Source: Candidatus Formimonas warabiya
GTDB lineage: Bacteria > Bacillota > Dehalobacteriia > Dehalobacteriales > Dehalobacteriaceae
Length of the DNA stretch: 64,000 bases
Direction of reading: 5' to 3'
Assembly: GCF_002777255.1 (NCBI RefSeq)
Contig: NZ_CP017634.1
Location: 186,001-250,000 of the forward strand
Positions 20,874-60,673 of this stretch are shown one piece after another; the stretch's first letter is position 1; each line of letters begins with the position of its first letter. Below the pieces are notes generated by a model that saw only the letters and a list, made by a program, of their open reading frames with translations, made no database searches and had not been told where the DNA came from. Made by a program: the position numbers and the translations under genes.

Positions 20874-20916
20874 CCAGGATATTAGAGAAGGCGATTGTTT
20901 AAAGGAGGATTGGCAA

Positions 20917-23389: not shown

Positions 23390-23524
23390 GCTTTGACCTC
23401 CTTTCTTCTGCATTATATCAAAGATAAAAGAGACATATCCGACATTATCGGTGCCGATTTTGCATGGTGTGGTATGAGAAATACATTTCATAATGACTTG
23501 ATCAATCCGCCGTCAGGCAAGAAC

Positions 23525-23746: not shown

Positions 23747-23860
23747 AAATATTCCTCCTTTATGTCTGCCTTGCAAAGAACGGACAACCAAGGAGGCAGG
23801 TTACTGACAGTTTGCACTGCGTCCGGACTACCAACCGGAACTGTGTTTTCATCTTTGCAT
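23747..23860 (-). ncRNA. Structured leader, candidate yjdF riboswitch
   Basis: On the minus strand a promoter at 23865-23892 is followed by a leader of about 110 bases before the DUF2992 start. It folds into nested stems: ACAGTT with AACTGT, and inside it CCGG-TTGGTAGT-CCGG. Leaders before DUF2992 genes in Firmicutes commonly hold the yjdF motif, a riboswitch for azaaromatic compounds. The assignment rests on gene context, length and fold; I could not align it to the motif. Confidence 0.45.
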
Positions 23861-23864
23861 TTTT

Positions 23865-25162: not shown

Positions 25163-25996
25163 ATGAAACTGCATTTTTTAAAAGTAAATCCCAGCGGAAA
25201 TACGACTGTGTTTGTGCTTGATCCCATACCCAGGGAGCAATATGCGAAGGTAGCTGGAAAGATTATGCAGCAGTGCTGCGTTGGAGCGGAGCAGGTCGGT
25301 TTTATCGGTGAGGCAACTATTCTTTATGCGGTGGGCCGTATGGATATGGCTGGTGGTGAATTTTGTGGTAATGCCTCACGCAGCTTTGCCGCATGGATGG
25401 CGTTAAAGGATGAAACTGGGCTAGATGTACATAATTTTAGGGAAGTTGAACGTAAGGTTATCATCGAGGTTTCCGGATACAAGGGCACGCTGGAGGCCTC
25501 TCTGGGTAATCTGGACGCTGACAATAAATGTATTGCCAGTGTTTCCATGCCTATCCCTAAACGGATTTTGCGTGGAACAGACAGGTATTTTGGTAGATAC
25601 AGTCTTGTGATCTTTGAAGGGATAAGCCATCTCATACTTTGGGGACGTGATCCCAAAGATGGGGATATCCAAGCAGCGCAGGCTTTTCTGGCAGCCCAAG
25701 GAGCAGACTTTTCCTCATTTGGCATTATGTATTACAGTTATGAAACGAATTTCATGCGTCCAGTCGTTTATATTAATGCGGCACAGACCTTGGTGTGGGA
25801 AAACAGTTGCGGTTCGGGATCCTGTGCGTTAGCCGCCTCTCTGGCCGATCAGCAGCAGGCTGGAATATCCGCCTTGACACTTCATCAGCCCGGAGGCGAT
25901 CTTACTGTTGATGTGGTCTGGGAACAGGGAATTAAAGATATTGTTTTGAGTGGTGTGGTAGAAATTACCGCCATCGGTATTGCGTATATCGACTAA
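25163..25996 (+). CDS. DapF-like cofactor-independent amino acid epimerase/racemase
   Basis: A 277-residue protein of the diaminopimelate-epimerase fold, with two catalytic cysteines in the expected places: Cys68 in GGEFCGNASRSFA and Cys216 in ENSCGSGSCALAA. The GGEFCGNASRS form is closer to the histidine-racemase (CntK) branch than to housekeeping DapF, which has a CGNG motif. It should invert an alpha-carbon by two-base chemistry in the cytoplasm. ATG 25163 is chosen for the GAGAGGT eight bases upstream; the frame opens further up at 25142. As first gene of the catabolic run, it probably interconverts L and D forms of an amino acid feeding the downstream enzymes. Confidence 0.8.
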   Translation: MKLHFLKVNPSGNTTVFVLDPIPREQYAKVAGKIMQQCCVGAEQVGFIGEATILYAVGRMDMAGGEFCGNASRSFAAWMALKDETGLDVHNFREVERKVIIEVSGYKGTLEASLGNLDADNKCIASVSMPIPKRILRGTDRYFGRYSLVIFEGISHLILWGRDPKDGDIQAAQAFLAAQGADFSSFGIMYYSYETNFMRPVVYINAAQTLVWENSCGSGSCALAASLADQQQAGISALTLHQPGGDLTVDVVWEQGIKDIVLSGVVEITAIGIAYID

Positions 25997-27092: not shown

Positions 27093-27132
27093 TTGACATA
27101 TTACTGAAATTTAGCTATATTAAATTTAGCTA
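27093..27132 (+). promoter_or_regulatory. Promoter of the molybdenum hydroxylase operon, with direct repeats
   Basis: TTGACA (27093-27098), 17 bases, TATATT (27116-27121). The 11-mer AAATTTAGCTA occurs at 27107-27117 and again at 27122-27132, so one copy lies across the -10 and one just after it, 15 bp apart. This is a likely regulator site. The start of transcription near 27128 leaves a leader of about 480 bases before the first gene. Confidence 0.7.
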
Positions 27133-27607
27133 CATAGAACAAACACTTGACATTTCAAATCGGCACTTCACAACAGACATGTTAATTAAGGCAATCTTAC
27201 CATTGGTGATGTTAAGTTATTGTGAACGAACTTTCAGGATTGTAAGATTAAATTGATAGAACTGCATAAGAATTTCCATAAAGAGGATAAGTTATTAGTA
27301 ATAACAAAGCCCTATGGCTTTTACAAATTATAAGCCAATTATATTGTAACCACCATGCCTCCTAGGCATAATTAATAATGAAAATGGGTAAAAGTATTTT
27401 CTTGTTAATAAAAAAGAAAGAAGGTTGAGAACGTAAGGTAACAAAAAAATTTGGAAAGGAGGATATTTGGAGGATTAAGGCGGTGTTAAGACAACGAGGT
27501 AAAGGAAAAATCTGTTATAGATCCTTCTAATATCAGACTCGGTTGGTTGGGACTGTCCCAACCGGCTTAAACTAAGCTGGTTTTGAGCTTGGAGGTGTTT
27601 CTCATTC
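27133..27607 (+). promoter_or_regulatory. Long untranslated leader with exclusive hairpins
   Basis: No gene is seen in these 475 bases. Hairpins occur at AAAGCC-CTAT-GGCTTT (about 27305-27321) and ATGCCT-CCT-AGGCAT (27355-27369). Near the end, GGTTGGGA-CTG-TCCCAACC (27545-27563) and AACCGGCTT-N5-AAGCTGGTT (27560-27582) compete for the same bases 27560-27563, the second running into TTTTG. Such exclusive stems are typical of attenuators or riboswitch expression platforms. AAAGGAGG near 27456 has no useful frame behind it. Confidence 0.5.
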
Positions 27608-29875
27608 ATGAGTGTGATTGGTAAGAATATTACGCGTGTTGATGCGCTTGAAAAAGCCAATGGCACGGCAAGCTTTTGCGATGATATTTATTTCCGCAAC
27701 ATGGTTTACGGTAGGATGGTGCACAGTCCCCATGCCCATGCACGGATCATGAATATTGATACTTCTGCTGCACGGGCGCTGCCGGGCGTCCGTGCTGTAC
27801 TGACAGCCAAAGATATTCCGGATAACAGCAATCTTGGCGAAGAGCATGGGTGGATGCTTGCTGATAAAGAAGTATGCTATATCGGCGATCCTGTTGCTGT
27901 TGTAGCTGCGGATAGCGAGGCAATCGCGGCGGAAGCCGTTAAGCTGGTAAAGGTAGACTATGAGGTATTACCCGGTGTGTTTTATCTGGAGGATGCATTG
28001 AGGGAAGGAGCTCCTTTAGCCTGTCCGGACACAGACAGTAATCTCCTCATGGATCTTCATTCCGTGCGGGGTGATGTAGAGGATGATTTTGCCAAAGCCG
28101 ACTTGATTGTTTCCGAAACCTTTCACTTTCCCCATATTTTTCAAGGATATTTAGAACCTAATAGTGCGACTGCGACATTTATCAATGGTGAACTGACGGT
28201 TTACTGCGGTTCTCAAGCATGGCATCGTTTGAAAAAAGACATCGCCAAACGTTGTAATTTACCTTTGAATAAAGTGATCCTGCGCCCGATGACTATGGGT
28301 GGTGCTTTTGGTGGAAAGAGTGAACAGATCACACCGATCATCGCAGCTCTTTTGGCTATGGAAACCCATCGCCCCGCTAAATTCACGCGTACCCGGGAGG
28401 AAGAATTCTATGATTCCCATCCTTCAGTAGAAATGATTGTAAAAGTGACAATGGCGGTAGATAAGGAAGGTCATTTTCTTTCCCGCAAAACTGAATATTT
28501 GGGTGATGTGGGTGCTTACGGTGTAGCCGGTACCTGGGTATTAGGGGTGGCCAGCTATCGCGCTGATACGACATATAAATTTAATTCGGTGGAGGTATCC
28601 ACCAAGGGCGTTCGGCTCAATCGTACGCCTACTGCGGCATACCGGGGATATGGCAACCCTCAGGCGCACTTTGCCCTGGAGAGTATGATTGACATTTTGG
28701 CAGAAAAATTGGGTATGGATCCTACTGAACTACGCTTGAAGAATTATATCGAACCAAATTCGATCAGTATCCACGGTTATCATATCAGTAGCTGCGGCCT
28801 TCCGGAGTGTATGAACCGGGCCAAGGAACTCATTAACTGGGATAAGATGCGCGGCTCGAGCCATCGCTATGGTCATGGTGTCGGTTGTGCTTCTTTGGTT
28901 CATGCGGCAGGCAGCCGTGCGGGGGATCCAGAGTTTCCCGGTGACAGCGCCTTATTACAATGTGATATGGACGGCCAGCTGACCGTGTTTACCGGGGAAG
29001 CGGAATTTGGACAGGGTGCCAAGACAGTCATGGCCCAGGTTGTGGCAGAGGAATTCGGCGTAGATCCAAAATCAGTGCGGGTGATTATGGGCGATACCCA
29101 GCACACACCGTTTGCCACCGGTACCCATGGCAGCAAGTTGACGACTATTTTAGCCAACGCCCTTTTGGCAGCCTGTACTGAAGCGAAAAAAGAAATTCTG
29201 GATAGTATCATCTTAATCACCGGTAGTGGCAGACTCACTATCGAACAGGGCAAAATTTTGAACTACCGCGGCGATGTTCTAATGACATTGGAAGAGGCAT
29301 TGCACAAGGTTTGCCTGAAGCGCAGCGGTGCGCCTATTATTGCCATGGGTGAATACCGTCCCGCCGCAGTGATGCTTGATACAACCGGTTATGGCAATTT
29401 GGCACCGACCTACCCCTTTGGCGTGCAAGCGGCTGAGGTGGAGGTAGACGTAGAGACCGGCCGTATTCATGTGAAGAAGATTGTTTCTGTGCATGATAGT
29501 GGAACGGTGTTCAATCGGCAGATGGCAGAAGGAGAAGTTTACGGCGGGGTAACGCAGGCATTTGGCTTTACTACAATGGAACAATTGGCCATTAACAATC
29601 AGGGTTTGCTGCATGGTGGTACTTTTCTTGAATATAAGATGCCGACCATGCTAGACATACCGGAACTAGTAGCGGATTTTGTGGAGACCTGTGATCCCCA
29701 TGGACCTTACGGCGCAAAATCGCTTGGTGAACCACCGATTGTTTCTGTACTACCCGCTATTGCGAATGCCGTGTATCATGCCATCGGTCTTCGCTTGACA
29801 GATGCGCCTTTTACGCCGCAAAAGGTGCTGAAAGCAATAAAAGAACCGAAAGCAAAGGAAGGAAGAAGCAAATGA
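27608..29875 (+). CDS. Molybdenum hydroxylase large (Mo-cofactor) subunit, set 1
   Basis: A 755-residue xanthine-dehydrogenase-family large subunit. The N-terminal a/b hammerhead domain (about 1-125) begins IGKNITRVDALEKANGTASF; the Mo-cofactor domains follow with MGGAFGGKSE (about 233) and AYRGYGNPQAHFALE, and the catalytic Glu708 lies in SLGEPP. It hydroxylates (or in reverse dehydroxylates) an aromatic or heteroaromatic carbon with water as oxygen source. The partner subunits are at 31925 (2Fe-2S) and 32422 (FAD plus extra 4Fe-4S), and unusually etfB and etfA lie between. ATG 27608 follows TTGGAGGTG, and the stop overlaps the etfB start (ATGA). Substrate cannot be read from the sequence. 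Confidence 0.9.
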   Translation: MSVIGKNITRVDALEKANGTASFCDDIYFRNMVYGRMVHSPHAHARIMNIDTSAARALPGVRAVLTAKDIPDNSNLGEEHGWMLADKEVCYIGDPVAVVAADSEAIAAEAVKLVKVDYEVLPGVFYLEDALREGAPLACPDTDSNLLMDLHSVRGDVEDDFAKADLIVSETFHFPHIFQGYLEPNSATATFINGELTVYCGSQAWHRLKKDIAKRCNLPLNKVILRPMTMGGAFGGKSEQITPIIAALLAMETHRPAKFTRTREEEFYDSHPSVEMIVKVTMAVDKEGHFLSRKTEYLGDVGAYGVAGTWVLGVASYRADTTYKFNSVEVSTKGVRLNRTPTAAYRGYGNPQAHFALESMIDILAEKLGMDPTELRLKNYIEPNSISIHGYHISSCGLPECMNRAKELINWDKMRGSSHRYGHGVGCASLVHAAGSRAGDPEFPGDSALLQCDMDGQLTVFTGEAEFGQGAKTVMAQVVAEEFGVDPKSVRVIMGDTQHTPFATGTHGSKLTTILANALLAACTEAKKEILDSIILITGSGRLTIEQGKILNYRGDVLMTLEEALHKVCLKRSGAPIIAMGEYRPAAVMLDTTGYGNLAPTYPFGVQAAEVEVDVETGRIHVKKIVSVHDSGTVFNRQMAEGEVYGGVTQAFGFTTMEQLAINNQGLLHGGTFLEYKMPTMLDIPELVADFVETCDPHGPYGAKSLGEPPIVSVLPAIANAVYHAIGLRLTDAPFTPQKVLKAIKEPKAKEGRSK

Positions 29876-30651
29876 AAATTGTTGCTTGTATCAAACAAGT
29901 ACCGGACACTGTTGAAATAACTATTGATAAGGAAACCGGCGTTCTGGTTCGTGATAATGTTCCTGCCATCCTTAATCCCTTTGATGCCTATGCCATTGAA
30001 GAAGCTGTCTTGATCAAAGATAGTTGCGGCGGCGAAGTCACAGCAATTACCATGGGCCCGCCACAGGCTATCGCTGTGTTACATGACGCCTTTTCCGTGG
30101 GTGTTGACCATGCCGTGCATATATGTGACAGTGCTTTCCGTGGTTCCGACACCTTCGTTACAGCCAAAATCCTTGCTGCCGCCATAAAAAAGCTGGGCGG
30201 CGTGGATCTGATCCTTTGTGGCAAACAGGCCATCGATGGGGATACCGCCCAGGTTGGTCCGGAGATTGCCGAATTTCTTGATATCCCGCATGTAGCCTAT
30301 GTCAAAAAGATCCGTGAGGTCAGTGAGGATGCTATTTTATTAGAAAGAATGACCGAAACCGGGATCGAAGTTATCCAGGTGAAGCTGCCTGCAATGTTAA
30401 CGGTTTTAAAGGATATCAATACACCCAGATTGCCTTCTTTCAAGTTAAAACGTGCTGCAAAAGAGAAGGCAATTCCGGTTTGGGGGATCCAAGAACTTGG
30501 CCTATGTGAAGAAGAGGTTGGATTGCAAGGCTCTCCGACAACCGTGATGAAAACATTTACGCCCAAAGCCCGCGGCAATTGCCAGATGCTTTCCGGATTA
30601 GATGAAGATATAATTGACGCCCTGTTTTTACAGATCGACTCGGCGCTTTAA
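29872..30651 (+). CDS. etfB: Electron transfer flavoprotein beta subunit
   Basis: A 259-residue EtfB. The start MKIVACIKQVPDT, NPFDAYAIEEAV and the long motif GKQAIDGDTAQVGPEIAEF are present; the DGDTAQVGP form belongs to the clostridial, bifurcation-type group rather than to the mitochondrial group. It overlaps the molybdenum subunit stop by four bases and is followed 15 bases later by EtfA, so all are co-translated. The heterodimer carries FAD and shuttles electrons between a dehydrogenase, NAD(H) and ferredoxin. Its position inside the subunit genes of a molybdenum hydroxylase suggests that this enzyme is its partner. Bifurcation itself is inferred. Confidence 0.93.
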   Translation: MKIVACIKQVPDTVEITIDKETGVLVRDNVPAILNPFDAYAIEEAVLIKDSCGGEVTAITMGPPQAIAVLHDAFSVGVDHAVHICDSAFRGSDTFVTAKILAAAIKKLGGVDLILCGKQAIDGDTAQVGPEIAEFLDIPHVAYVKKIREVSEDAILLERMTETGIEVIQVKLPAMLTVLKDINTPRLPSFKLKRAAKEKAIPVWGIQELGLCEEEVGLQGSPTTVMKTFTPKARGNCQMLSGLDEDIIDALFLQIDSAL

Positions 30652-30666
30652 GAGGGGGAAAACTTC

Positions 30667-31881
30667 ATGCTTGGTATTCAGATATTAAGAGATAAATGCA
30701 TCGGTTGCGGTATATGCATGGATGCTTGCCTGCAAAATGCCATTGAACTGGATGATGAAAATACTGCCGTAATCGGTGCTGCCTGTAATATGTGCGGGTC
30801 CTGTGTTCCGGAGTGTCCCAGCGAAGCCATTCGGAAATCAGGCGCCGGTGCGGAAAACCTGGATTACCTTGATGTGTCTCATCTGGCCGGTTGCCGTGAT
30901 ATTTGGGTGATTACTGAGCTTCGTGATGGTCGTATCGCTTCCTGCACCATGGAGCTGCTGGGTGAAGCACACCGGTTGGTTAAAGGGACAGCCCACAGCG
31001 TGGCTGCTGTATTGCTTTGCAAGGAGGTTGGTTTATATCCTTCCGAGTTGATTGCCGCCGGTGCGGACAAAGTCTATACAATACAAAACAAAATGTTTAA
31101 ACAATTTAAGGATCAGCCTTATAAAGAAGCGATCTTGCGTCTGGTCAAAGAAGAAAAGCCGCTGGCGATACTCTTTTCTGCTACGGCTATGGGCCGTTCG
31201 CTGGCGCCACGTCTAGCTGCGGCACTTAAAACCGGTCTGAGTGCTGATTGTACTCAGTTAGAGCTGCGTGATAACGGCATCCTAATTCAGACCCGGCCTG
31301 CTTTTGGTGGTAACCTCTTCGCCAGCATTCTGTGTCCGTATACCTGGCCTCAGATGGCAACCGTACGCCCTAAGGTGATGAAGCCGCTAGAGCCGGACGC
31401 TAAACGTCAAGGTAAAGTTATTGAAAAAAACTATCATCTTGATGAGAATGCAGTAATGACGAATATCATCGATTATATAGCAGAGATCAGCGAAGCCTCA
31501 GTGGACGATGCTGAAATCGTGGTCGCCGCCGGTTATGGTGCGGCAACTGAGAAGGGGCTCGCCCTTGTCTCCGAGCTGGCCAAAGTCTTTGGCGGCGCCT
31601 TAGGCGTGTCTCGCAAGGTCGTTGACGCCGGCCTAATCTCCTATAAACATCAGATCGGCCAAACAGGTAAGACTATTAGTCCCAAGTTATATATCACCTG
31701 TGGTATTTCCGGAGCTATACAACACATCGTGGGTATGAGTTCGGCCAAGAAGATCGTGGCTATTGACCTAGACCCCAATGCTCCTATCTTTCATATGGCA
31801 GATGTTGGCATTGTAGCTGACCTCTATGAGTTTATCCCCAAACTAATTACTGCACAGAATGAACGTAAAAAACAAGTTTGA
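30667..31881 (+). CDS. etfA: Electron transfer flavoprotein alpha subunit with N-terminal ferredoxin domain
   Basis: A 404-residue EtfA preceded by a two-cluster ferredoxin domain. Cys11, 14, 17, 21 and Cys40, 43, 46, 50 form two classical 4Fe-4S sites (CIGCGICMDAC, CNMCGSCVPEC). The Etf core follows from about residue 65, with the FAD-binding region SRKVVDAGLISYKHQIGQTG and the C-terminal GISGAIQHIVGM ... DPNAPIF. Ferredoxin-EtfA fusions occur in anaerobes whose Etf passes electrons to or from ferredoxin. The ATG at 30667 follows AGAGGGGG. With EtfB it would connect the molybdenum hydroxylase, or the DAO flavoprotein, to the ferredoxin/NADH pool. Confidence 0.93.
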   Translation: MLGIQILRDKCIGCGICMDACLQNAIELDDENTAVIGAACNMCGSCVPECPSEAIRKSGAGAENLDYLDVSHLAGCRDIWVITELRDGRIASCTMELLGEAHRLVKGTAHSVAAVLLCKEVGLYPSELIAAGADKVYTIQNKMFKQFKDQPYKEAILRLVKEEKPLAILFSATAMGRSLAPRLAAALKTGLSADCTQLELRDNGILIQTRPAFGGNLFASILCPYTWPQMATVRPKVMKPLEPDAKRQGKVIEKNYHLDENAVMTNIIDYIAEISEASVDDAEIVVAAGYGAATEKGLALVSELAKVFGGALGVSRKVVDAGLISYKHQIGQTGKTISPKLYITCGISGAIQHIVGMSSAKKIVAIDLDPNAPIFHMADVGIVADLYEFIPKLITAQNERKKQV

Positions 31882-31924
31882 CCGGTTCTCGAATACACCG
31901 TAATTGAGAAATGAGGGTAAACGT

Positions 31925-32407
31925 ATGATAAATGATAAAAGAAAGCTTCTAAAAATAACCGTGAACGGCGAAGAACGTACGGATATGATTGACGGGGATA
32001 TGACGTTACTTGATTATCTGCGTGACTACCTCGGCTTGTTTGGTACCAAGCGATCGTGCAATTGTGGGGAATGTGGCTCCTGCACGGTTTTAATGGATGG
32101 GCGGGCTATTTATTCTTGTGTGACTTTGGCGTTGCAGGCGTACGGAAAAACTGTGCTTACCATTGAAGGCCTGGCCGCACCGGGTGAGGTACATCCCATC
32201 CAGGCCGCGTTTATCGAATCCGGTGCTGTGCATTGTGGCTTTTGCACACCTGGTTTTATCATGAGCACCAAAGCACTGTTGGATCGTAAACATTATCCCG
32301 GCGATGATGAGATCAAGGAAGCTTTGGCGGGTAATTTATGCCGTTGTACCGGCTATGTGCAGATTATCAATGCAGTTAAGCTGGCTTCTAAGAAGCTTTA
32401 TGGCTAA
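31925..32407 (+). CDS. Molybdenum hydroxylase 2Fe-2S subunit, set 1
   Basis: A 160-residue small subunit of the xanthine dehydrogenase family. The plant-type 2Fe-2S cluster is bound by CNCGECGSC plus a later cysteine (YSC), and the second, all-helical cluster by CGFCTPGF and CRCTGY. It passes electrons from the Mo site to FAD. ATG 31925 is preferred since GAGGG lies eight bases upstream; the TTG at 31904 has no ribosome site. It lies between etfA and the FAD subunit, 14 bases before the latter, in the same operon. Confidence 0.93.
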   Translation: MINDKRKLLKITVNGEERTDMIDGDMTLLDYLRDYLGLFGTKRSCNCGECGSCTVLMDGRAIYSCVTLALQAYGKTVLTIEGLAAPGEVHPIQAAFIESGAVHCGFCTPGFIMSTKALLDRKHYPGDDEIKEALAGNLCRCTGYVQIINAVKLASKKLYG

Positions 32408-32421
32408 GGGAGGAAAAGAAG

Positions 32422-33396
32422 ATGTCATATCAAGTGTTTAAAGCCCATTCTTTGGCGGAGCTGTGGCAAATCTTTGCGGATCGTCCCGATGCATATCCCA
32501 TTGCCGGAGGTACGGATATTATCCCTCGTGTAAATCAAGGAATTGAGTTCCATCCACTGTTTGTTTGCCTGGATGAGATTTTAGAGCTGTACGGTGTTGT
32601 TTGGCTGCCGGATGGTTCACTGCAGATTGGTGCATTAAGTAAACTAGTAGAGTTAGCCGAGAATAAACGGTTATCTGAATATCACGCGCTGCAGCAGGCA
32701 TGCTCCCGTGTGGCGTCTCCGCAGATTCGTAATCAGGCAACGATCGGTGGCAATGTCCTGCAGGAGAACCGCTGTATCTATTTTAACCAATCAGTTAGCT
32801 GGCGCAGAGAAGAACCTTGTTTTAAACTGGGGGGAAAACGTTGCTACCAATATACGCGTAGCCCGCAGTGCGTTGCTTTGTTTCAGTCTGATGTGGCGCC
32901 GGTGCTGATGTCTTATCATGCGGTCGCTTGTTGGCAGGGTCCCCGCGGCATACGGCAAACACCGCTCGCTGAACTTTATCTTGATGCCGGCAAGAAAGCC
33001 AAAGGGACCGATGAAATCCTAATTGCACTTGTAATCCCCCCCATAGATGGTGTTATGCGTTCTGCTTATACTAGGGAGACGATCCGGGGCTCCTTTGATT
33101 TTCCGCTGATTAGTTGTGCTATGACCTTCGTGGAGCAAGATGGGCGGATCACACAAGCCACGGTTGTTATAGGCAGTGCCGGTGTGAAACCGCAGTATGT
33201 GGATGATATCAAACCGCTGTTACAGGGGAAGACCCCTGCAGAAGCGGTGAAACTGATGGAGGAAGTTCAGACGCTTGCTACAAAAAAGATCGCGCCGTTT
33301 CGCGATAGCCGGGTTGATGCTGTAACCAGAAAGGCACTGGGCAAATCCGCAGTCAAACGTGCATTGTTACAGGTTTGTGGGCAGGATCGACAATAA
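32422..33396 (+). CDS. Molybdenum hydroxylase FAD subunit with extra 4Fe-4S insertion (HcrB-like)
   Basis: A 324-residue FAD-binding subunit. FAD motifs are AGGTDIIPR (28-36) and ATIGGNV (106-112). Between residues 118 and 150 it has Cys118, Cys133, Cys141 and Cys150, spaced 15, 8 and 9. This matches, with one residue less in the first gap, the loop that binds an additional 4Fe-4S cluster in 4-hydroxybenzoyl-CoA reductase beta, including the NQS...W segment. In that enzyme the cluster lets low-potential ferredoxin electrons drive reductive dehydroxylation. The paralogous FAD subunit at 39466 lacks the loop. Together with the Etf-ferredoxin genes this suggests low-potential electron exchange in this complex. 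Confidence 0.9.
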   Translation: MSYQVFKAHSLAELWQIFADRPDAYPIAGGTDIIPRVNQGIEFHPLFVCLDEILELYGVVWLPDGSLQIGALSKLVELAENKRLSEYHALQQACSRVASPQIRNQATIGGNVLQENRCIYFNQSVSWRREEPCFKLGGKRCYQYTRSPQCVALFQSDVAPVLMSYHAVACWQGPRGIRQTPLAELYLDAGKKAKGTDEILIALVIPPIDGVMRSAYTRETIRGSFDFPLISCAMTFVEQDGRITQATVVIGSAGVKPQYVDDIKPLLQGKTPAEAVKLMEEVQTLATKKIAPFRDSRVDAVTRKALGKSAVKRALLQVCGQDRQ

Positions 33397-33438: not shown

Positions 33439-34617
33439 ATGAAAAATTATGATGTAGTCTTTGTTGGCGGATCCCTAATGGCGTGCGCGGCTGCGTACAC
33501 GATGTTAAACGAAAACCCGAACACAAAGATCTTGATGATCGAAAAGGATCCCACCTATAAGCTTGCCGCCACGCCTCTCGCTTTAGGCGGGATCCGACAG
33601 CAATTCAGTGAACGTGTTAATATCCGTCTGGCTAAGATCAGCGTTGACACCTTTGAGAATTTTGGTGAACTAATGGAGACAAAAACTTTTGGGAAACCTG
33701 AGATTGATCTGCGCCAGGGTGGTTACCTTTTCCTGGTGGATGAGAGCAAATGGCCGGTAGCGCAGGAAAATGCCAAGGTACAAAAAGAAGAAGGGGTTGA
33801 TATTCGACTGCTCACCCCCGGCGATTTGGAAACTATGCTGCCTGAAACGGATTTATCGGGTATCGTTGGCGGTACCATATGCCCAAGAGAAGGCATCCTC
33901 GATCCACAGTCCGTATTAACCGGCTATCTGCGTAAGGTCAGAGAACTGGGCGCGGAGTTAATCACCGATGAAGTGGTGGGCATGAAGATGACTGGGGATA
34001 AGATCAGGGAAATAAACTGTAAATCCGGTGAGGCCTTTAGCGCGGATGTGATCGTTAATGCAGCCGGTCCATGGGCAAAAGAGATTGGCAAGATGATCGG
34101 TCTCGACATTCCCGTGGAGCCAATGGCCCATGACCTTTATGTAGCCAAAATGCCGATGGAAGCAAATGTGGGTCATTCCTATACAACGCTGCCCACCACG
34201 ACATGGTGGTATAGGGAGCATCAAACCGGAGATACGCTGCTGTGCGGGAAAACTAAACTTGATTTCAGCTTTGGTTTTGACTTTAATGTCGATGTGCCGT
34301 ATTTCGAAGAGGAGGTCTGGCCCGATCTTGCTGAACGTATGGAAAAGCTGGATAACCTGAGGCTGTTAAAATACTGGCGCGGCTGCTACGAGTATAACCC
34401 GATAGACTTTAACGCCATCATCGGCCAGCATCCTGATGTGACGAACTTTTATCTGATCAATGGTTTTTCCGGTCATGGTATGATGCAGGCGCCGGCTGCA
34501 GGACAGGGTCTTGCTGAGTACATTCTGTACGGCGAATACCGGACACTGGATTTGAGTGCGATGAATATGCGCCGTTTCCGTGAAAATAGGTTAATCGTTG
34601 AAAAAGCGATCATTTAA
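33439..34617 (+). CDS. DAO-family FAD-dependent oxidoreductase
   Basis: A 392-residue flavoprotein of the D-amino acid/sarcosine oxidase family. The N-terminal Rossmann motif is slightly unusual (VVFVGGSLMACAAAYTML, with a GGSxxA core), followed by MIEKD and LGGIRQQFSE; VNAAGPWAKEIG and the C-terminal NGFSGHGMMQAPAAGQGLAEY are typical of the family. It should oxidise a C-N bond of an amino or imino acid, perhaps a D-amino acid supplied by the epimerase at 25163. In an anaerobe the acceptor would be a carrier rather than oxygen, and the EtfAB three genes upstream is the natural candidate. ATG 33439 follows a GGGGG ribosome site. Confidence 0.85.
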   Translation: MKNYDVVFVGGSLMACAAAYTMLNENPNTKILMIEKDPTYKLAATPLALGGIRQQFSERVNIRLAKISVDTFENFGELMETKTFGKPEIDLRQGGYLFLVDESKWPVAQENAKVQKEEGVDIRLLTPGDLETMLPETDLSGIVGGTICPREGILDPQSVLTGYLRKVRELGAELITDEVVGMKMTGDKIREINCKSGEAFSADVIVNAAGPWAKEIGKMIGLDIPVEPMAHDLYVAKMPMEANVGHSYTTLPTTTWWYREHQTGDTLLCGKTKLDFSFGFDFNVDVPYFEEEVWPDLAERMEKLDNLRLLKYWRGCYEYNPIDFNAIIGQHPDVTNFYLINGFSGHGMMQAPAAGQGLAEYILYGEYRTLDLSAMNMRRFRENRLIVEKAII

Positions 34618-34641: not shown

Positions 34642-35976
34642 ATGAAAGATTTACGTCAATTGCTTAGGTGGCTGGATGCACGCGGGCAGATTGCGCATGT
34701 AACGCGGGAGGTCGCTCCGGATTACGAATTGGTCGCGGTTGCCAAAAAGATTAATGAACGGTACGGCAAAGCTGTCTATTTTGAGCACGTAAAGGGCTCC
34801 AAATATCCTGTTCTTTCTTATGCGCTGTCATCCAGAGAGGGGATCGCGGAATCCTTGAATATGGAGCCGCAGCGGATGGTGCATCAGTGGAGTTGCCGCG
34901 AAGCACAGCAGAAGCCTTATCGCATCGTTGAGAGCGGCTCGGTACAAGAGGTAGTGGAGGCTAACCCTGATTTGTTTGATCTGCCCCTCTGCTTGCACAG
35001 TGATGGAAACAATGGCCGTTATATCACCGGCGGCGTGCTGGTGGCGCGTCACCCAGGGCTTGGCATGATGAACGCCTCCTTCAATCGTTGCCAACTGGTA
35101 GATAAAGATAAGCTGCGTGTGCGGATGATGCCTCCGCAACATTTGGGGGTGATTTATGAAGAGGCGGAAGCATTGAACAAACCGCTGGAAGTAGCGATTG
35201 TTATCGGCGCTTCTCCAGCGGTAATGTACAGCGCCGCTTCCAAAATCCCCATAGACCGTGATGAACTGGAATTTGCCGGCGCCCTGTCAAATGAACAACT
35301 GGACGTGGTGCGCGGCAAGAGTATCGACGTATTGATCCCTGCAAATGCAGAAATTGTCATAGAGGGAAAGGTACTGCCCCATGTACGCGAGGATGAAGGG
35401 CCTTTCGGTGAATTTACGGATTCCTATGTACCGGTGATGCAAAACCATGTATTTCAAATGACCGCGATTACCCACCGCAAGGACGCATTCTGGCATGATA
35501 TCTATGCGGGCGGCACGGAGGATCTTAATTTGCTTGGTTTGCCGATAGAATCAGAGGTTTTCAATCATATCCGAAAGTTCGCAAACCCCGAGGATATCAT
35601 AGATGTAGTAACATCACCCTTTGTGTTCGGTTGTTTCATCCGTTTACGCAAACGTAACGAACAGCAGCCGAAAAACATTCTCCTCTCGGCACTGGCTTCT
35701 TACGCTTGGATCAAGTTCGCAGTAGTGGTGGACGAGGACGTAGATATTCGCAAACCCAACGACGTTTTTTGGGCGATCCAGACACGGTGCTGCCCGGATA
35801 AGGGTGTTATGGTTATCCCCGGTGTATCCTCCTATACCAGAGAAGATGTAAAAGACGAGAATATCGGCAAATTCGGAATAGATGCCACGGCCCCACTGCA
35901 CAAGAGCCATATTTACAGACGCCGCACCAACAGAATGTACGACCAGATCAGAATCGATGATTATTATAAATCGTAA
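34642..35976 (+). CDS. UbiD-family decarboxylase (prenylated-FMN enzyme)
   Basis: A 444-residue UbiD-family protein. These enzymes use prenylated FMN for reversible decarboxylation of aromatic, heteroaromatic or acrylic acids. The catalytic Glu pair of the E-R-E triad is visible in DEGPFGEFTDSY (Glu and Glu five residues apart, residues about 253-258), and the N-terminal DLRQLLRWLDARGQI and late WHDIYAGGTEDLNLLGLP are family signatures. The cofactor-making UbiX is not encoded in the window. ATG 34642 follows CAGGAGG. It is flanked by the DAO flavoprotein and the DUF4392 gene, co-directional with small gaps, so it belongs to the same pathway, removing or adding a carboxyl group on the ring substrate. 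Confidence 0.9.
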   Translation: MKDLRQLLRWLDARGQIAHVTREVAPDYELVAVAKKINERYGKAVYFEHVKGSKYPVLSYALSSREGIAESLNMEPQRMVHQWSCREAQQKPYRIVESGSVQEVVEANPDLFDLPLCLHSDGNNGRYITGGVLVARHPGLGMMNASFNRCQLVDKDKLRVRMMPPQHLGVIYEEAEALNKPLEVAIVIGASPAVMYSAASKIPIDRDELEFAGALSNEQLDVVRGKSIDVLIPANAEIVIEGKVLPHVREDEGPFGEFTDSYVPVMQNHVFQMTAITHRKDAFWHDIYAGGTEDLNLLGLPIESEVFNHIRKFANPEDIIDVVTSPFVFGCFIRLRKRNEQQPKNILLSALASYAWIKFAVVVDEDVDIRKPNDVFWAIQTRCCPDKGVMVIPGVSSYTREDVKDENIGKFGIDATAPLHKSHIYRRRTNRMYDQIRIDDYYKS

Positions 35977-36005: not shown

Positions 36006-37076
36006 ATGGATTATCGTTTTATCGGCGAAGCAGTTGACCGCTTAGTCACGGTGCCGATGTCCAACTGGACGATTTTAAAAGGCTTGCCGCTTACAAAAAC
36101 CTATGAAGCTGCGCGTGCCAAAGCAGGCGGCGAACCACTGACACTAAAGGCAGCGCGCCTGCTGACCGAGCGGGTGAAAAAAGGTGATACGGTGCTTCTT
36201 CTTTCCGGCTTTGTCATTCTCAACTGGAACCGGCCGGAAACAGATGGTCCTATCGGCGCAGCAGCTTTGGCGCGAAGTCTTGATCTAGCACTGGGTGCCG
36301 TTCCGGTGATCCTGACTGAAGACATTCTAGTTGACAATCTGGCTGCAACGACAGAGGCAGCAGGCATGGTTGTTTGTGATCATGAAGAAGAGCTTCATCG
36401 TGGCGGTCGGGGCCGAAAGGCATTGGTGATGGGCTTTCCGCTGGAACATGAAGAAGCGAAGAAGCGGACTATTGAGATTCTCGACCGGCTCAATCCCAAA
36501 GCTGTCATTGCAGTTGAACGTCCCGGATGGAATGAATATCAAGTCCATCACAGCGGCATGGGCTATAATATTTCCGATGTTACAGCCAAACTTGATTACC
36601 TTTTCCTTGAAGCGCAGAAGCGCGGCATACTCACTATCGGTGTGGGTGATTTGGGTAATGAGATGGGTATGGGTTCTGTGGAAGAAGAGGTCAAAGCCGG
36701 TATCCCTAATGGAGCAACTTGTTTGTGCGGGTGTGGCGGCGGCATCGCTTGCAACATCTCTGCTGATGTAGGCTTGATCTGCAATATTTCCAACTGGGGC
36801 GCTTATGGTATCTGTGCTTGTCTCGCTGCATTGGCCGGCGAGGAGGAAGTTCTGCATGACGGGAAACTGGAAAGTCGTATGATCAGTGCCTGTGTGGAAG
36901 CTGGTGCACTCGATCCGGTTAGCGGTATGCTTATCCCCTGTGTGGACGGTGAGCCGGATACGATTAACGCATACATCGTGGAAATGCTGCGTGGGATTGT
37001 GCGTCATATTACCAAAGGGAGTATCTTTACTCGTAGCTACCGGGAGACAGGTAAAAAGAGGATTGAAAACTTGTAG
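36006..37076 (+). CDS. DUF4392 protein (D-glutamate-cyclase-like)
   Basis: A 356-residue protein of the DUF4392 family, the domain also found at the C-terminus of D-glutamate cyclase, which turns D-glutamate into 5-oxo-D-proline. Family features are ETDGPIGAAALARSL, IAVERPGWNEYQVHHSGMGY, TIGVGDLGNEMGMG and the glycine/cysteine-rich CLCGCGGGIACNISADVG. The cysteine-rich stretch (CLCGCGGGIAC) is notable. In this cluster it could open or close a lactam ring such as 5-oxoproline. It follows UbiD by 29 bases and precedes the second molybdenum hydroxylase by 94 bases. Family call is firm, reaction is inferred. Confidence 0.8.
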   Translation: MDYRFIGEAVDRLVTVPMSNWTILKGLPLTKTYEAARAKAGGEPLTLKAARLLTERVKKGDTVLLLSGFVILNWNRPETDGPIGAAALARSLDLALGAVPVILTEDILVDNLAATTEAAGMVVCDHEEELHRGGRGRKALVMGFPLEHEEAKKRTIEILDRLNPKAVIAVERPGWNEYQVHHSGMGYNISDVTAKLDYLFLEAQKRGILTIGVGDLGNEMGMGSVEEEVKAGIPNGATCLCGCGGGIACNISADVGLICNISNWGAYGICACLAALAGEEEVLHDGKLESRMISACVEAGALDPVSGMLIPCVDGEPDTINAYIVEMLRGIVRHITKGSIFTRSYRETGKKRIENL

Positions 37077-37170: not shown

Positions 37171-39450
37171 ATGGTAATCGGAAAAAGTATTAATCGTGTA
37201 GATGCGATTGATAAAGTGCTGGGACGTGCAAAATTTACAGAAGACTTAATACCGGCTAATGCTTTGGTAGGTCGGGTGATGCATAGCACCATCGCCAATG
37301 GCCTGGTGAAAACCATTGATACAAGTAAGGCGTTGTTAATGGACGGCGTTATCAAGGTAGTCTCTTGCTTCGACGTGCCAAATATCCAGTTTCCGACTGC
37401 CGGCCACCCTTGGTCTCTCGATGAAAGCCATCAGGATGTACGTGACCGTAAAATATTGAATCAAAGAGTACGTCATTACGGCGACTGCATTGCCGCTGTA
37501 TTGGCCAAAGATGAGATCATTGCCGCGCGCGCAATAGCCGCGCTGAACGTAGAGTATGAAGAATATCCTGTGCTGCTGGATCCTGCAGCTGCCCTTGAGT
37601 CCGAGGCCGATGCGATTCACTTGGAATACCCAGATAATATCTTAAAAAAGACAAATTATACAGATGGTGACTGGCAGGCAGCCGTACACCAGGAAGGTTT
37701 GCTGCAGCTGAAAAAAAAATATCTTACAGTTCCAGTACAGCATTGCCACATTGAGAATCCAGTATGTTTCGCTTATATGGAGGGGGATCGCATCGTAGTA
37801 GTAAGTTCCACACAAATTCCCCACATCGTACGACGGGTAGTCAGTCAGGCGTTGGGGATTCCCTTGGGTAGAATCCGGGTTATTAAACCGTATGTTGGCG
37901 GCGGTTTCGGTAATAAGCAGGACGTGATCTATGAACCCCTGGCAGCCTATTTGACTATGGTGGCGGGCGGTCACTGCGTTTGTCTCAACATGAGCAGAGA
38001 GGAGACTTTTTCATCCAGCCGTACCCGTCATGGTATGGAGTTTTATTTACACAGCTGGGTTGACCGCAAGGGAAATCTGGCGGCGCGTTATGTTAAAGGC
38101 GTCTCCAATCAGGGTGGCTATGCCTCGCACGGCCATACAGTTTTAGCTAATGCCATCAGTGGGTACCGCAATCTATATCATCAACAAGCGATCCGACAGG
38201 AAGCAGTCACAGTTTACACCAATATCTGCAGCGGCGGCGCCATGCGCGCTTATGGCATACCTCAAATTAATTTTGCCATGGAATCCCATATGGATGATCT
38301 AGCCCAAAAGCTTTGTATTGATCCAATCGACTTTAGAAAACGAAATATGATGCGCGTGGGAGACGTTGATCCCGGGACGGGGATTATCTGCCATAGTAAC
38401 GGGCTGGAGGAATGCCTTAATGTGGGCAAGAGCTATATAGATTGGCAGAAAAAACGAGAGTTATACCGTGAACAGAGCGGTGATATCCGTCGTGGAGTAG
38501 GGATGGCGATCTTCAGTTACAAGACCGGTGCTTATCCCAGTGCTATGGAGATTGGCAGTGCCAGGGTGATCCTTAACCAGGATGGCTCTGTTCAGGTGCA
38601 GATGGGTGCAACAGAGATCGGGCAAGGCGCAGATACGGTCTTCTCACAAATGGCAGCAGAAACGATTGGTATTGAGCCCGATCAGGTACATGTGATCAGT
38701 ACACAGGATACCGACACGACACCCTTTGATACTGGTGCCTATGGTTCCCGCCAGTCCTATGTTTCGGGTGCCGCATTGAAGCAGACATGTCTATTGTTTC
38801 TGGAGAGGATCTTTTGTTATGCCGCTGAGCGGTGGGGTTGTAACAGCATTGATCTTGATCTTCGCAAAGGGATGCTTCAGAGCAAAGTAACCGGACAAAC
38901 TGTAGTGTCATTGAAGCAATTGGCAATGAATGCGTTCTACAGCAGAGAACATGCAATGCATATCACCGCGGAATCCTCCTACCAGTGTAAGGATAACACC
39001 TATGCATTGGGATGCTGTTTTGCGGAGATAGAGGTGGATATTCGTCTGGGCAGGATTAAGATTCTTGATATCGTCAATGTACATGATAGCGGACGAATTA
39101 TCAATCCCATGTTGGCGAAAGCACAAGTACATGGCGGTATGGCGATGGGACTGGGCTATGCCCTTTCTGAACAAATGCTGTATAACAGAGAAGGAAAATT
39201 ATTGAACGGAAATTTCTTGGATTATAAGCTGCCTACAGCGATGGATATACCGCCGCTGCAGGTGAGATTTGTAGAAACATATGACCCTAGCAGTCCTTAT
39301 GGGAATAAATCTCTAGGTGAACCTCCAGTAATCCCTGTCGCCGCTGCGGTTCGTAATGCCTTGCTTTGTGCCACCGGTGTCGCAATCGATCAGCTGCCTA
39401 TGAATCCGCCATGTCTGATCAAAGCTTTTCAGGCGGCAGGATTGATATAG
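37171..39450 (+). CDS. Molybdenum hydroxylase large (Mo-cofactor) subunit, set 2
   Basis: A 759-residue xanthine-dehydrogenase-family large subunit, related to but clearly different from the one at 27608. It has the hammerhead start IGKSINRVDAIDKVLGRAKF, the Mo-cofactor motif VGGGFGNKQD (where set 1 has MGGAFGGKSE), MRAYGIPQINFAME and the catalytic Glu717 in SLGEPP. A run of cysteines near 610-640 is odd but not a known motif. Its partners follow directly: FAD subunit 15 bases later and 2Fe-2S subunit overlapping that, the classical order. Two different large subunits in one run imply two successive hydroxylations, or oxidation and reduction at different ring positions. Confidence 0.9.
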   Translation: MVIGKSINRVDAIDKVLGRAKFTEDLIPANALVGRVMHSTIANGLVKTIDTSKALLMDGVIKVVSCFDVPNIQFPTAGHPWSLDESHQDVRDRKILNQRVRHYGDCIAAVLAKDEIIAARAIAALNVEYEEYPVLLDPAAALESEADAIHLEYPDNILKKTNYTDGDWQAAVHQEGLLQLKKKYLTVPVQHCHIENPVCFAYMEGDRIVVVSSTQIPHIVRRVVSQALGIPLGRIRVIKPYVGGGFGNKQDVIYEPLAAYLTMVAGGHCVCLNMSREETFSSSRTRHGMEFYLHSWVDRKGNLAARYVKGVSNQGGYASHGHTVLANAISGYRNLYHQQAIRQEAVTVYTNICSGGAMRAYGIPQINFAMESHMDDLAQKLCIDPIDFRKRNMMRVGDVDPGTGIICHSNGLEECLNVGKSYIDWQKKRELYREQSGDIRRGVGMAIFSYKTGAYPSAMEIGSARVILNQDGSVQVQMGATEIGQGADTVFSQMAAETIGIEPDQVHVISTQDTDTTPFDTGAYGSRQSYVSGAALKQTCLLFLERIFCYAAERWGCNSIDLDLRKGMLQSKVTGQTVVSLKQLAMNAFYSREHAMHITAESSYQCKDNTYALGCCFAEIEVDIRLGRIKILDIVNVHDSGRIINPMLAKAQVHGGMAMGLGYALSEQMLYNREGKLLNGNFLDYKLPTAMDIPPLQVRFVETYDPSSPYGNKSLGEPPVIPVAAAVRNALLCATGVAIDQLPMNPPCLIKAFQAAGLI

Positions 39451-39465
39451 AAGGAGGCGTGATTT

Positions 39466-40341
39466 GTGTTCGATATTGCGCAAAATGATCTGGCATATCG
39501 TGTAGATCAGGCGATCGCTTTTCTGGACGCCGATCCGAATGCCATTGTGATCGCCGGAGGAACAGATGTCTTAATTAAGGTAAGAGATGGGAAACTGGCA
39601 GGCTGCCATCTCGTTAGCATTAATGGTATTAAGGAATTGAAGGGTGTGCGCTTAAATGAGAATAACGAAATAGTGATTGGTTCCCTGACCACCTTCAGGG
39701 AATTGGAAGAAGATGAAACGATTCAAAGGCATATGCCGATTTTAGCCGGCGCCGCAGGCGCAGTAGGCGGGCCGCAGATCCGAGCCGTAGGTACGATTGG
39801 TGGTAACATCAGTAACGGTGTAACGAGTGCCGATACCGCATCTACTCTGCTGACTCTAAATGCGGAGCTAACCTTAACCTCTTCTGCCGGTCATCGGTTA
39901 CTGCCTATCGAAGCATATTACCTAAGCGCCGGAAAGGTGGCACTTCGTCATGGCGAGCTGTTGACGGCCATAACCATAAAACCCGCTGATTATCGGGGCT
40001 ATCACGGAAAATATATCAAATACGCGATGCGCAATGCTATGGATATCGCCATACTGGGCTGTGCGGTGCTGATAAAAACTGATGTGCCGTCTCGATTTAT
40101 CGAGGATATCCGAATCGCATTAGGCGTGGCCGGGCCTGTTCCAATGAGAGCATTAAAGACGGAGGCTGCTTTGATCGGTTTACCATTAGAGGAGGCGCTG
40201 TGCATAGGGCCGGATATATTGCGTAAGGAGATTACCCCGCGTGATTCCTGGCGGGCCTCGCGGGCCTTTCGTCTGCATGTGGCTGGAGAGATTTTTCGCC
40301 AGGCATTAGCGAGCGCGTGGCAAGAAGGAGTTGAGCGGTAA
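39466..40341 (+). CDS. Molybdenum hydroxylase FAD subunit, set 2
   Basis: A 291-residue CoxM/XdhB-type FAD subunit with AGGTDVLIK (residues about 31-39) and VGTIGGNISNG (about 106-116). It lacks the four-cysteine insertion of the set 1 subunit, so this enzyme passes electrons from the 2Fe-2S centres to FAD only, and probably on to NAD. GTG at 39466 follows AAGGAGG. Its stop overlaps the start of the 2Fe-2S subunit (TAATG), showing coupled translation. Confidence 0.92.
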   Translation: MFDIAQNDLAYRVDQAIAFLDADPNAIVIAGGTDVLIKVRDGKLAGCHLVSINGIKELKGVRLNENNEIVIGSLTTFRELEEDETIQRHMPILAGAAGAVGGPQIRAVGTIGGNISNGVTSADTASTLLTLNAELTLTSSAGHRLLPIEAYYLSAGKVALRHGELLTAITIKPADYRGYHGKYIKYAMRNAMDIAILGCAVLIKTDVPSRFIEDIRIALGVAGPVPMRALKTEAALIGLPLEEALCIGPDILRKEITPRDSWRASRAFRLHVAGEIFRQALASAWQEGVER

Positions 40342-40826
40342 TGATACGCATCGTCCATTTGTCTGTCAACGGCAGAGAAGAGGAATTGGCTGTGGATGTT
40401 AGAGAAACGTTAGCGGATACGCTTCGTAACCGTCTGGGTTTAACGAGCGTGAAAAAGGGGTGTGGCGTTGGAGAATGTGGTGCCTGTACCGTACTAATTG
40501 ACGGTATCGCTATCAATAGCTGCATCTATTTGGCGACATGGGCGGAAGGTAAGCAGATCCTGACAGTGGAAGGCTTGCAGCAGAATCCCGGCCAATTACA
40601 TCCAATTCAGCGTGCTTTTGTAGAGGAAGCAGCAATTCAATGTGGTTTTTGTACACCGGGTATGATAATGACCGCGGTAGAAATCGTGAGAAGCGGTAAA
40701 AAATACACACGTGATGAATTGCGCAGGTTGATCTCCGGGCATCTTTGCCGCTGTACTGGATATGAGAATATATTAAATGCCATTCAGCGTTCACTTACAG
40801 AAGCTGGATTCAATGAACTTGGATAG
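40341..40826 (+). CDS. Molybdenum hydroxylase 2Fe-2S subunit, set 2
   Basis: A 161-residue small subunit. Cluster ligands are CGVGECGACTV with a later NSC for the first 2Fe-2S, and CGFCTPGM with CRCTGY for the second. It completes the three-subunit hydroxylase of genes 37171, 39466 and 40341. The start overlaps the FAD-subunit stop by one base. It is followed by 220 bases without a gene before the NhaC-type carrier. Confidence 0.93.
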   Translation: MIRIVHLSVNGREEELAVDVRETLADTLRNRLGLTSVKKGCGVGECGACTVLIDGIAINSCIYLATWAEGKQILTVEGLQQNPGQLHPIQRAFVEEAAIQCGFCTPGMIMTAVEIVRSGKKYTRDELRRLISGHLCRCTGYENILNAIQRSLTEAGFNELG

Positions 40827-52640: not shown

Positions 52641-52674
52641 CATGAACGAGTTCATGTCAAAGGGGATGGGGCAA

Positions 52675-60390: not shown

Positions 60391-60442
60391 ATAAGTAAGA
60401 ATTATCAATAACTGGAATAAAAATGAGTATGTGAGTATGATG

Positions 60443-60645: not shown

Positions 60646-60673
60646 TTATAAATCCAAATATAAAATCAAAAAT

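What the first reader, a model, noticed from the sequence alone, without database searches (positions are those of the whole stretch)
27608..33396. Molybdenum hydroxylase with Etf-ferredoxin genes inside its operon and an HcrB-type extra 4Fe-4S cluster
Seen: etfB and etfA (with two 4Fe-4S sites) lie between the Mo large subunit and its 2Fe-2S and FAD subunits, with a four-base overlap and short gaps. The FAD subunit has Cys118, 133, 141, 150 in the spacing of the 4Fe-4S loop of 4-hydroxybenzoyl-CoA reductase. Known: in that enzyme the cluster lets ferredoxin electrons drive a reductive reaction; EtfB with DGDTAQVGP belongs to the bifurcating type. Inference: a complex coupling a molybdenum hydroxylase to flavin-based electron bifurcation or confurcation, which I do not know as a described arrangement.
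Basis: partly seen in the sequence, partly recalled or inferred. Interest (0 to 1): 0.85.

Follow-up and report, generated by a model that had tools for sequence, protein, structure and literature searches.

The report
Bifurcating Etf paired with amine dehydrogenase
In one bacterial gene cluster a molybdenum enzyme with an extra predicted iron-sulfur site sits beside a flavoprotein of the predicted electron-splitting type, which is likely the partner of a neighbouring predicted amine dehydrogenase rather than of the molybdenum enzyme, so the two would share electrons only through ferredoxin, and that would be a new kind of partner for this energy-saving device.

Summary
MoL1, etfB, etfA with eight ferredoxin Cys, a 2Fe-2S subunit and a FAD subunit with Cys118/133/141/150 lie in this order at 27608-33396. 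The four Cys align one to one with 4-hydroxybenzoyl-CoA reductase beta (1rm6) and are invariant in 44 of 44 aligned rows. The Etf has the bifurcation marks Gly123 (EtfB) and Arg210 (EtfA; CarE Arg203).

Direct coupling of Etf to the hydroxylase is not well supported. In the 5 loci whose neighbourhood can be read, Etf and DAO are both present (2) or both absent (3), while the hydroxylase is always there. In the other positive locus a different DAO and a different EtfAB sit side by side.

I conclude that EtfAB probably serves the DAO, likely like LctBCD: amine oxidation to NADH paid for with reduced ferredoxin, which the hydroxylase would supply. Partner choice is inferred (about 0.55), direction and substrate more weakly. 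A DAO partner is not among the four EtfAB complexes of a 2018 review table.

The parts
27608..29875 (+). MoL1, molybdenum-binding large subunit (755 aa)
   Evidence: Pfam MoCoBD_1/2, Ald_Xan_dh_C; best PDB match 1rm6_A; below the cut-offs of all 13 NCBIfam families it matched
29872..30651 (+). EtfB of the bifurcating type (259 aa), 4-base overlap with MoL1
   Evidence: best PDB match CarD 6fah_B; Gly123 in DGDTAQVGP
30667..31881 (+). EtfA with N-terminal 2x[4Fe-4S] domain (404 aa)
   Evidence: best PDB match CarE 6fah_A over residues 3-395; 8 Cys; Arg210 aligned with CarE Arg203, invariant in A4
31925..32407 (+). 2Fe-2S subunit of the molybdenum enzyme
   Evidence: Fer2, Fer2_2; TIGR03193 190.7 bits, cut-off 257.8
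32422..33396 (+). FAD subunit with HcrB-type 4Fe-4S cysteines 118, 133, 141, 150
33439..34617 (+). DAO: sarcosine/proline-dehydrogenase-like FAD oxidoreductase, proposed partner of EtfAB
34642..35976 (+). UbiD-family (de)carboxylase
   Evidence: TIGR00148 303.6 bits, above its cut-off; best PDB match 6h6v
36006..37076 (+). glutamate-cyclase-like protein (PF14336)
   Evidence: 75% identical in L011, 51% beside UbiD on a Pseudohalocynthiibacter plasmid
37171..40826 (+). second molybdenum hydroxylase, xanthine-dehydrogenase type (XdhA, XdhB, XdhC order)
   Evidence: all three above NCBIfam equivalog cut-offs
41053..42645 (+). NhaC-family transporter (ORF may start at 40957)
   Evidence: Pfam PF03553
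26073..26801 (+). arylmalonate decarboxylase/Asp-Glu racemase family protein, upstream unit
   Evidence: homologue in L011 and on the plasmid
25163..25996 (+). DapF-fold histidine-racemase-like protein, upstream unit
   Evidence: NF052224 168 bits, cut-off 400; 42% in L011
24099..24713 (-). divergent XRE-cupin regulator
27093..27121 (+). promoter-like site, 11 of 12 consensus bases, about 480 bases before MoL1
   Evidence: 33 such sites in the region against 34.3 in shuffles, so weak

Best explanation
The gene cluster encodes a 4-hydroxybenzoyl-CoA-reductase-like molybdenum enzyme, a ferredoxin-fused EtfAB with bifurcation signatures and a sarcosine/proline-dehydrogenase-like flavoenzyme (DAO), and the EtfAB most likely exchanges electrons with the DAO and not with the molybdenum enzyme, which would be linked to it only through ferredoxin. 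Shown: genes, cofactor motifs, and joint presence or absence of DAO and EtfAB in the five loci read. Inferred: the DAO oxidises an amine (probably a cyclic or secondary amino acid) and passes electrons to the alpha-FAD of EtfA; EtfAB adds electrons from reduced ferredoxin taken up by its fused ferredoxin domain and reduces NAD+, as LctBCD does for lactate (confurcation); the molybdenum enzyme hydroxylates an N-heteroaromatic acid at low potential and delivers electrons through its HcrB-type 4Fe-4S site to ferredoxin, thus paying for the amine oxidation. UbiD, the glutamate-cyclase-like and racemase-like proteins would carry the carbon steps. The reverse direction (NADH-driven reduction of an imine or alkene, ferredoxin made for a reductive dehydroxylation) is the main variant within this reading.
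For: (1) Joint presence: window and L010 have both DAO and EtfAB; L009, L011 and L012 have neither in the stretch read, while MoL1-2Fe2S-FAD and a UbiD are in all five. EtfA at E <= 1e-20 is absent from 3 of the 5 relatives' genomes (L011, L012, L013). (2) In L010 the order is UbiD-DAO-EtfB-EtfA-MoL1-2Fe2S-FAD, the DAO holding the place before etfB. L010's EtfA lies outside the window clade (100/100 split), and its DAO too (25% to the window DAO; 27-31% to the best 11 other rows; window clade 100/100): another DAO came with another EtfAB to a homologous hydroxylase. (3) Contig-length matches among metagenome proteins (contigs of 10 kb or more): 7 EtfA-DAO, 6 EtfA-FAD, 5 DAO-FAD, 0.01-0.03 expected; 3 contigs hold all three. 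(4) DAO kin (sarcosine and dimethylglycine dehydrogenases) are Etf donors (PMC12630350, passages). (5) Etf bifurcation marks and LctBCD as precedent for confurcation (PMC5861303, passages).
Against: MoL1 and EtfB overlap by four bases, and etfAB split the hydroxylase genes, so co-translation with MoL1 is possible. By the usual rule the partner is the gene directly upstream of etfB (18 of 20); here that is MoL1. Only five loci could be read, the three with neither gene are MAGs, and MAGs can miss genes. The contig-length matches pair Etf with the FAD subunit about as often as with DAO; contigs 39877, 26465 and 27422 matched Etf and FAD subunit but no DAO, and 26688 and 19617 matched DAO and FAD subunit but no Etf. 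No search for DAO in the whole genomes of L009, L011 and L012 was made. L010 is one case with long branches. Nothing in sequence shows that this DAO gives electrons to an Etf; its nearest kin in the phylum (41 and 38%) have no Etf beside them. Neither substrate nor direction is known.
Confidence: 0.55

Rival explanations
1. One reading: EtfAB docks on the FAD (4Fe-4S) subunit, and the hydroxylase itself is coupled to flavin-based bifurcation or confurcation.
For: etfAB lie inside the hydroxylase genes with a 4-base overlap; MoL1 takes the place upstream of etfB that a partner dehydrogenase takes in 18 of 20 loci; hydroxylase and Etf stay together in L010 and on 6 metagenome contigs of 10 kb or more.
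Against: The same hydroxylase occurs without Etf in the stretch read in three loci, and without EtfA in three whole genomes. In the five loci read, Etf comes and goes with the DAO.
Confidence: 0.17
2. EtfAB is an electron bridge between two partners: DAO gives electrons by EtfAB to the FAD subunit of the molybdenum enzyme, or the reverse, as the Fusobacterium ETF joins lactate and butyryl-CoA dehydrogenases.
For: Precedent in PMC12630350 (passages); all three units on three metagenome contigs and in two readable loci.
Against: The Fusobacterium ETF is canonical; here the bifurcation Gly123, Arg210 and a fused ferredoxin domain are kept, which such a bridge would not need.
Confidence: 0.13
3. 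EtfAB serves an acyl-CoA dehydrogenase encoded elsewhere in the genome and lies here only by operon history.
For: Relatives in the phylum mostly sit beside acyl-CoA dehydrogenases (17 of the 20 best-scoring places read).
Against: The window EtfA is in a clade apart from the acyl-CoA-dehydrogenase-linked ones (100/100). The three other etfA places of this genome found at E <= 1e-20 have neighbours of their own, by eye: an acyl-CoA-dehydrogenase-like ORF before etfB in two, other flavoenzyme-like ORFs in the third. Clade members share metagenome contigs with DAO and hydroxylase.
Confidence: 0.07
4. Canonical, non-bifurcating use: EtfAB only carries DAO electrons onward to a quinone or other acceptor.
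For: DAO kin use canonical ETF in mitochondria (PMC12630350, passages). ORFs that look like ETF-quinone oxidoreductase by eye lie beside two other Etf sets of this genome (L142, L143).
Against: Gly123 and the ferredoxin domain argue for beta-FAD and ferredoxin exchange; no ETF-quinone oxidoreductase is among the family hits of this cluster.
Confidence: 0.08

Closest known systems
Caffeyl-CoA reductase-Etf complex CarCDE (Acetobacterium woodii)
   Same: EtfB and ferredoxin-fused EtfA match it best among solved structures over nearly full length; Arg203 and eight Cys kept
   Different: no acyl-CoA dehydrogenase CarC; a DAO-family flavoenzyme and a molybdenum hydroxylase are in the cluster instead
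Lactate dehydrogenase-Etf LctBCD
   Same: proposed working mode: high-potential oxidation driven by ferredoxin confurcation (PMC5861303, passages)
   Different: dehydrogenase is DAO type, not the FAD_binding_4/FAD-oxidase_C type (type of LctD recalled); two ferredoxin-type clusters instead of one
4-Hydroxybenzoyl-CoA reductase HcrABC (Thauera)
   Same: best PDB match for MoL1 and FAD subunit; four cluster cysteines aligned
   Different: all three subunits below the equivalog cut-offs; no CoA ligase among the family hits of the cluster
Urolithin C dehydroxylase Ucdh (Enterocloster)
   Same: another xanthine-oxidase-family dehydroxylase that its authors compare with 4-HBCR (PMC12771579, passages)
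   Different: uses NADH as donor (same passages); no sequence comparison made here
Sarcosine and dimethylglycine dehydrogenases; archaeal L-proline dehydrogenase beta
   Same: DAO fold and sequence kin; the first two are Etf donors
   Different: 392 aa, against 841 residues in the dimethylglycine dehydrogenase chain; Etf here is the bifurcating type

Membership tests
Bifurcating EtfAB | conserved Gly123 in EtfB that leaves room for beta-FAD | tested here: met
   Gly123 in DGDTAQVGP; criterion from PMC12630350, passages
Bifurcating EtfAB | Arg equivalent to CarE Arg203 | tested here: met
   Arg210 in the aligned QTRPAFGG, invariant in A4, 24 of 24 rows; criterion from PMC5861303, passages
Bifurcating EtfAB | NADH- and ferredoxin-dependent activity, two FAD | not testable with these tools
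   needs protein
CarCDE-type complex | acyl-CoA dehydrogenase gene beside etfBA | tested here: not met
   none among family hits for the cluster
CarCDE-type complex | ferredoxin domain with eight Cys at the N-terminus of EtfA | tested here: met
4-Hydroxybenzoyl-CoA reductase | four Cys of the beta-subunit 4Fe-4S loop | tested here: met
4-Hydroxybenzoyl-CoA reductase | NCBIfam equivalog cut-offs TIGR03193/4/5 | tested here: not met
   190.7 of 257.8, 494.2 of 994.55, 188.3 of 404.55 bits
4-Hydroxybenzoyl-CoA reductase | acts on a CoA thioester | not testable with these tools
   no ligase family hit in the cluster, rest of genome not searched
Sarcosine/dimethylglycine dehydrogenase | PF01266 FAD fold with DMGDH/SoxB-type match | tested here: met
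Sarcosine/dimethylglycine dehydrogenase | full-length two-part enzyme of about 840 residues | tested here: not met
   392 aa; the DMGDH rows of the listing match only up to chain residue 454
Xanthine dehydrogenase (second set, 37171-40826) | NCBIfam XdhA/B/C equivalog cut-offs | tested here: met
   1162.4, 370.1, 250.3 bits

The most novel reading that the evidence does not exclude
EtfAB forms one complex with the 4Fe-4S-bearing FAD subunit (and perhaps with the DAO as well), making the first molybdenum hydroxylase wired directly into flavin-based electron bifurcation, so that an aromatic hydroxylation or reductive dehydroxylation and an amine oxidation are coupled through one flavin switch.
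Probability: 0.17. Interest if true: 0.88.

Novelty: new variant of a known kind. Interest (0 to 1): 0.52.

Why it matters
The EtfAB-containing bifurcating complexes tabulated in the 2018 review have butyryl-CoA dehydrogenase, caffeyl-CoA reductase, lactate dehydrogenase or FixCX as partner (PMC5861303, passages); a 2020 paper names the same kinds (PMC7948398, passages). A sarcosine/proline-dehydrogenase-type partner would open amino-acid and amine oxidation to this mechanism and would explain how an anaerobe could oxidise an amine with NAD+. The cluster would also show a ferredoxin-making and a ferredoxin-using enzyme encoded together. The pairing is testable with three purified parts.

Tried and rejected
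Purine breakdown as the pathway: the XdhABC set passes the xanthine dehydrogenase cut-offs, but I noticed no purine-ring hydrolase in the window or in L009-L012; by eye only, no search made, so set aside rather than excluded. Pyrrole- or hydroxyproline-type pathways, and an indole pathway suggested by a tryptophanase-family gene upstream in the L010 contig, remain ideas without a test. A first thought that the DAO stands out by lacking carrier genes was dropped as evidence: flavin/iron-sulfur ORFs lie, by eye, beside some of its kin at about 30% identity, but not beside the two nearest (L119, L120). Scans of viral contigs with three alignments gave no relative. Homologues of the L010 DAO at E <= 1e-60: 0 of 398 genomes, an empty answer without positive control. 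Relatives of the FAD subunit: own genome and G003 (L010's contig) in 2 of 4 and 2 of 43 genomes of order and class; at E <= 1e-75 only the centre genome in 1 of 103 and 1 of 25; at E <= 1e-45 in the phylum 10 of 398, the window's own among them, the other nine at 160-206 bits, probably other HcrB-like enzymes. Rfam: no match at gathering scores between 23863 and 60436.

Paper searches, of which I saw listings: searches returned nothing; some searches returned 6, 4, 3, 7, 6 and 2 papers, none of whose titles or abstract starts describes Etf with a molybdenum hydroxylase or a bifurcating Etf with a DAO-type dehydrogenase. I read passages of four of them and nothing of the rest. The library holds open-licence PMC papers only.

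The contig-length method uses the length of the longest contig as a name for it. It can show presence only, since a cluster may be represented by another contig. Rows left out or misplaced: P0199 (a 74% EtfA piece on a 940-base contig) was not typed, and P0336 (a 63% DAO piece, contig 30458) was put in the outer group, so the DAO clade has 20 and not 19 contigs of 10 kb or more; neither changes a match. One match between a clade DAO and an Etf of the outer group (11021 bases) may be chance.


Full report
What is there. The window is bases 186001-250000 of a 6.44-Mb single-contig genome. The run does not end there: DAO (33439-34617), UbiD (34642-35976), a glutamate-cyclase-like protein (36006-37076) and a second molybdenum hydroxylase that passes the xanthine dehydrogenase cut-offs (37171-40826) follow with gaps of at most 94 bases; an NhaC-family transporter comes next after 130 bases or more. 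Upstream, behind an 806-base gap with a promoter-like site, lie a racemase-like and an arylmalonate-decarboxylase-like gene. That these genes form one operon is inferred from strand and gaps.

The Etf. EtfB and EtfA match CarD and CarE best among solved structures, EtfA from residue 3 to 395, the ferredoxin domain included. Gly123 of EtfB, given as invariant in bifurcating Etf by PMC12630350 (passages), and the Arg that PMC5861303 reports as crucial in CarE (passages) are present. No activity can be shown from sequence.

Who is the Etf's partner? Of 398 genomes sampled from the phylum, 31 have an EtfA at E <= 1e-100, the window's own included, at 32 listed places. I fetched the 20 best-scoring of the 31 places outside the window. 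The ORF of 250 aa or more directly before etfB is an acyl-CoA dehydrogenase in 17 of 20, a FAD-oxidase_C (GlcD-like) protein in 1, a urocanase in 1 and an M20 peptidase in 1; none is a molybdenum hydroxylase or a DAO. So such Etfs sit beside their dehydrogenase.

Against that stand the relatives of the hydroxylase. The scan of genome contigs gave ten loci, five of them close relatives at 42-55%; four can be read around the hydroxylase and one (L013) is cut short. The reach is at most 10 kb on each side, less at contig ends (L011 7.3 kb upstream, L012 4.9 kb downstream). L011 has racemase-like, UbiX, MoL1, 2Fe2S, FAD, UbiD (71%), glutamate cyclase (75%) and arylmalonate-type genes and no Etf or DAO. 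L009 and L012 have two UbiD and the hydroxylase, again with neither. L010 (the same contig as G003:C186, counted once) has UbiD-DAO-EtfB-EtfA-MoL1-2Fe2S-FAD. A search of the five whole genomes found no EtfA at E <= 1e-20 for L011, L012 and L013, one distant EtfA (34%, match from residue 77 on) for L009, and L010's own. All are MAGs and may be incomplete.

Trees. The window's EtfA and its 16 sampled kin form one side of a 100/100 branch; L010's EtfA falls among the acyl-CoA-dehydrogenase-type ones, on a long branch. The window's DAO and 14 kin form a 100/100 clade; L010's DAO is far off (25% to the window's; best 31% among the rows shown). So a second DAO and a second EtfAB stand together beside a homologous hydroxylase. 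The simplest reading is that DAO and EtfAB are gained and lost as a pair.

Metagenome support. Using the longest-contig length as a name, 27 EtfA-clade, 19 DAO-clade (20 with one piece that I misplaced) and 46 FAD-clade contigs of 10 kb or more gave 7 EtfA-DAO, 6 EtfA-FAD and 5 DAO-FAD matches, with 0.01 to 0.03 expected after jittering lengths. Three contigs (12266, 14345, 11929) carry all three; three match Etf and FAD subunit only, two DAO and FAD subunit only, four Etf and DAO only. This shows association but does not choose between the partners.

Mechanism. By analogy with LctBCD, which oxidises lactate (-190 mV) with NAD+ at the cost of reduced ferredoxin (-420 mV) (PMC5861303, passages), the DAO would oxidise an amine and EtfAB would add ferredoxin electrons to make NADH. 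Reduced ferredoxin could come from the molybdenum enzyme, whose 4Fe-4S site fits ferredoxin exchange. This explains why a ferredoxin-linked hydroxylase and a ferredoxin-linked Etf share a gene cluster without a physical complex. The direction is a guess; the reverse (NADH-driven reduction, as in CarCDE) is not excluded.

Pathway. UbiD, glutamate-cyclase-like and arylmalonate-type genes also stand together on a Pseudohalocynthiibacter plasmid, with an aminotransferase, a transporter and UbiX, without molybdenum or Etf genes in the 18-kb stretch read. RidA-type imine deaminases lie near the L010 and L012 hydroxylases. Four UbiX-like genes are elsewhere in this genome. An azaaromatic riboswitch lies about 1.3 kb before the racemase-like gene on the other strand. 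All this points to an N-containing ring acid, but the substrate is unknown.

Novelty. Ten paper searches listed no paper whose title or abstract start describes Etf with a molybdenum hydroxylase or a bifurcating Etf with a DAO-type dehydrogenase; the library holds open-licence papers only, and I read passages of four papers. I rate it a new variant of a known kind.

Noticed in passing
window 23764-23862 (-): Azaaromatic (yjdF) riboswitch, 82.7 bits, upstream of an AraC/GyrI-like regulator gene (22520-23395, -), about 1.3 kb from the racemase-like gene; may report on N-heteroaromatic compounds.
   Followed up: no
window 27122-27607: About 480 bases without a labelled gene between the best promoter-like site and MoL1; no Rfam match.
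   Followed up: partly
window 60437-60871 (+): Two glycine riboswitch aptamers before an ORF at 60995 that looks by eye like phosphoglycerate dehydrogenase.
   Followed up: no
window 20704-22416 and 52627-54174: Two very similar FAD proteins (phytoene-desaturase-like by eye) on either side of the cluster.
   Followed up: no
G000 genome: 33 matches of the FAD subunit at 19 places by my count: many molybdenum hydroxylases in one 6.4-Mb genome.
   Followed up: no
contig of 39877 bases (P0004, P0041, P0122): One metagenome contig length fits two FAD subunits, of the window type and of the L010 type, plus a window-type EtfA.
   Followed up: partly
L031 3227-6186: A tryptophanase-family lyase (below TnaA and tyrosine phenol-lyase cut-offs) and an AstE-like hydrolase lie upstream of the L010 cluster.
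   Followed up: partly
L137 10001-13081: UbiD, glutamate cyclase and Asp/Glu-racemase family genes adjoin or overlap on a conjugative Pseudohalocynthiibacter plasmid: a possible catabolic trio.
   Followed up: partly
L083 9349-11004 (-): A urocanase gene directly upstream of an EtfBA pair related to the window's.
   Followed up: no
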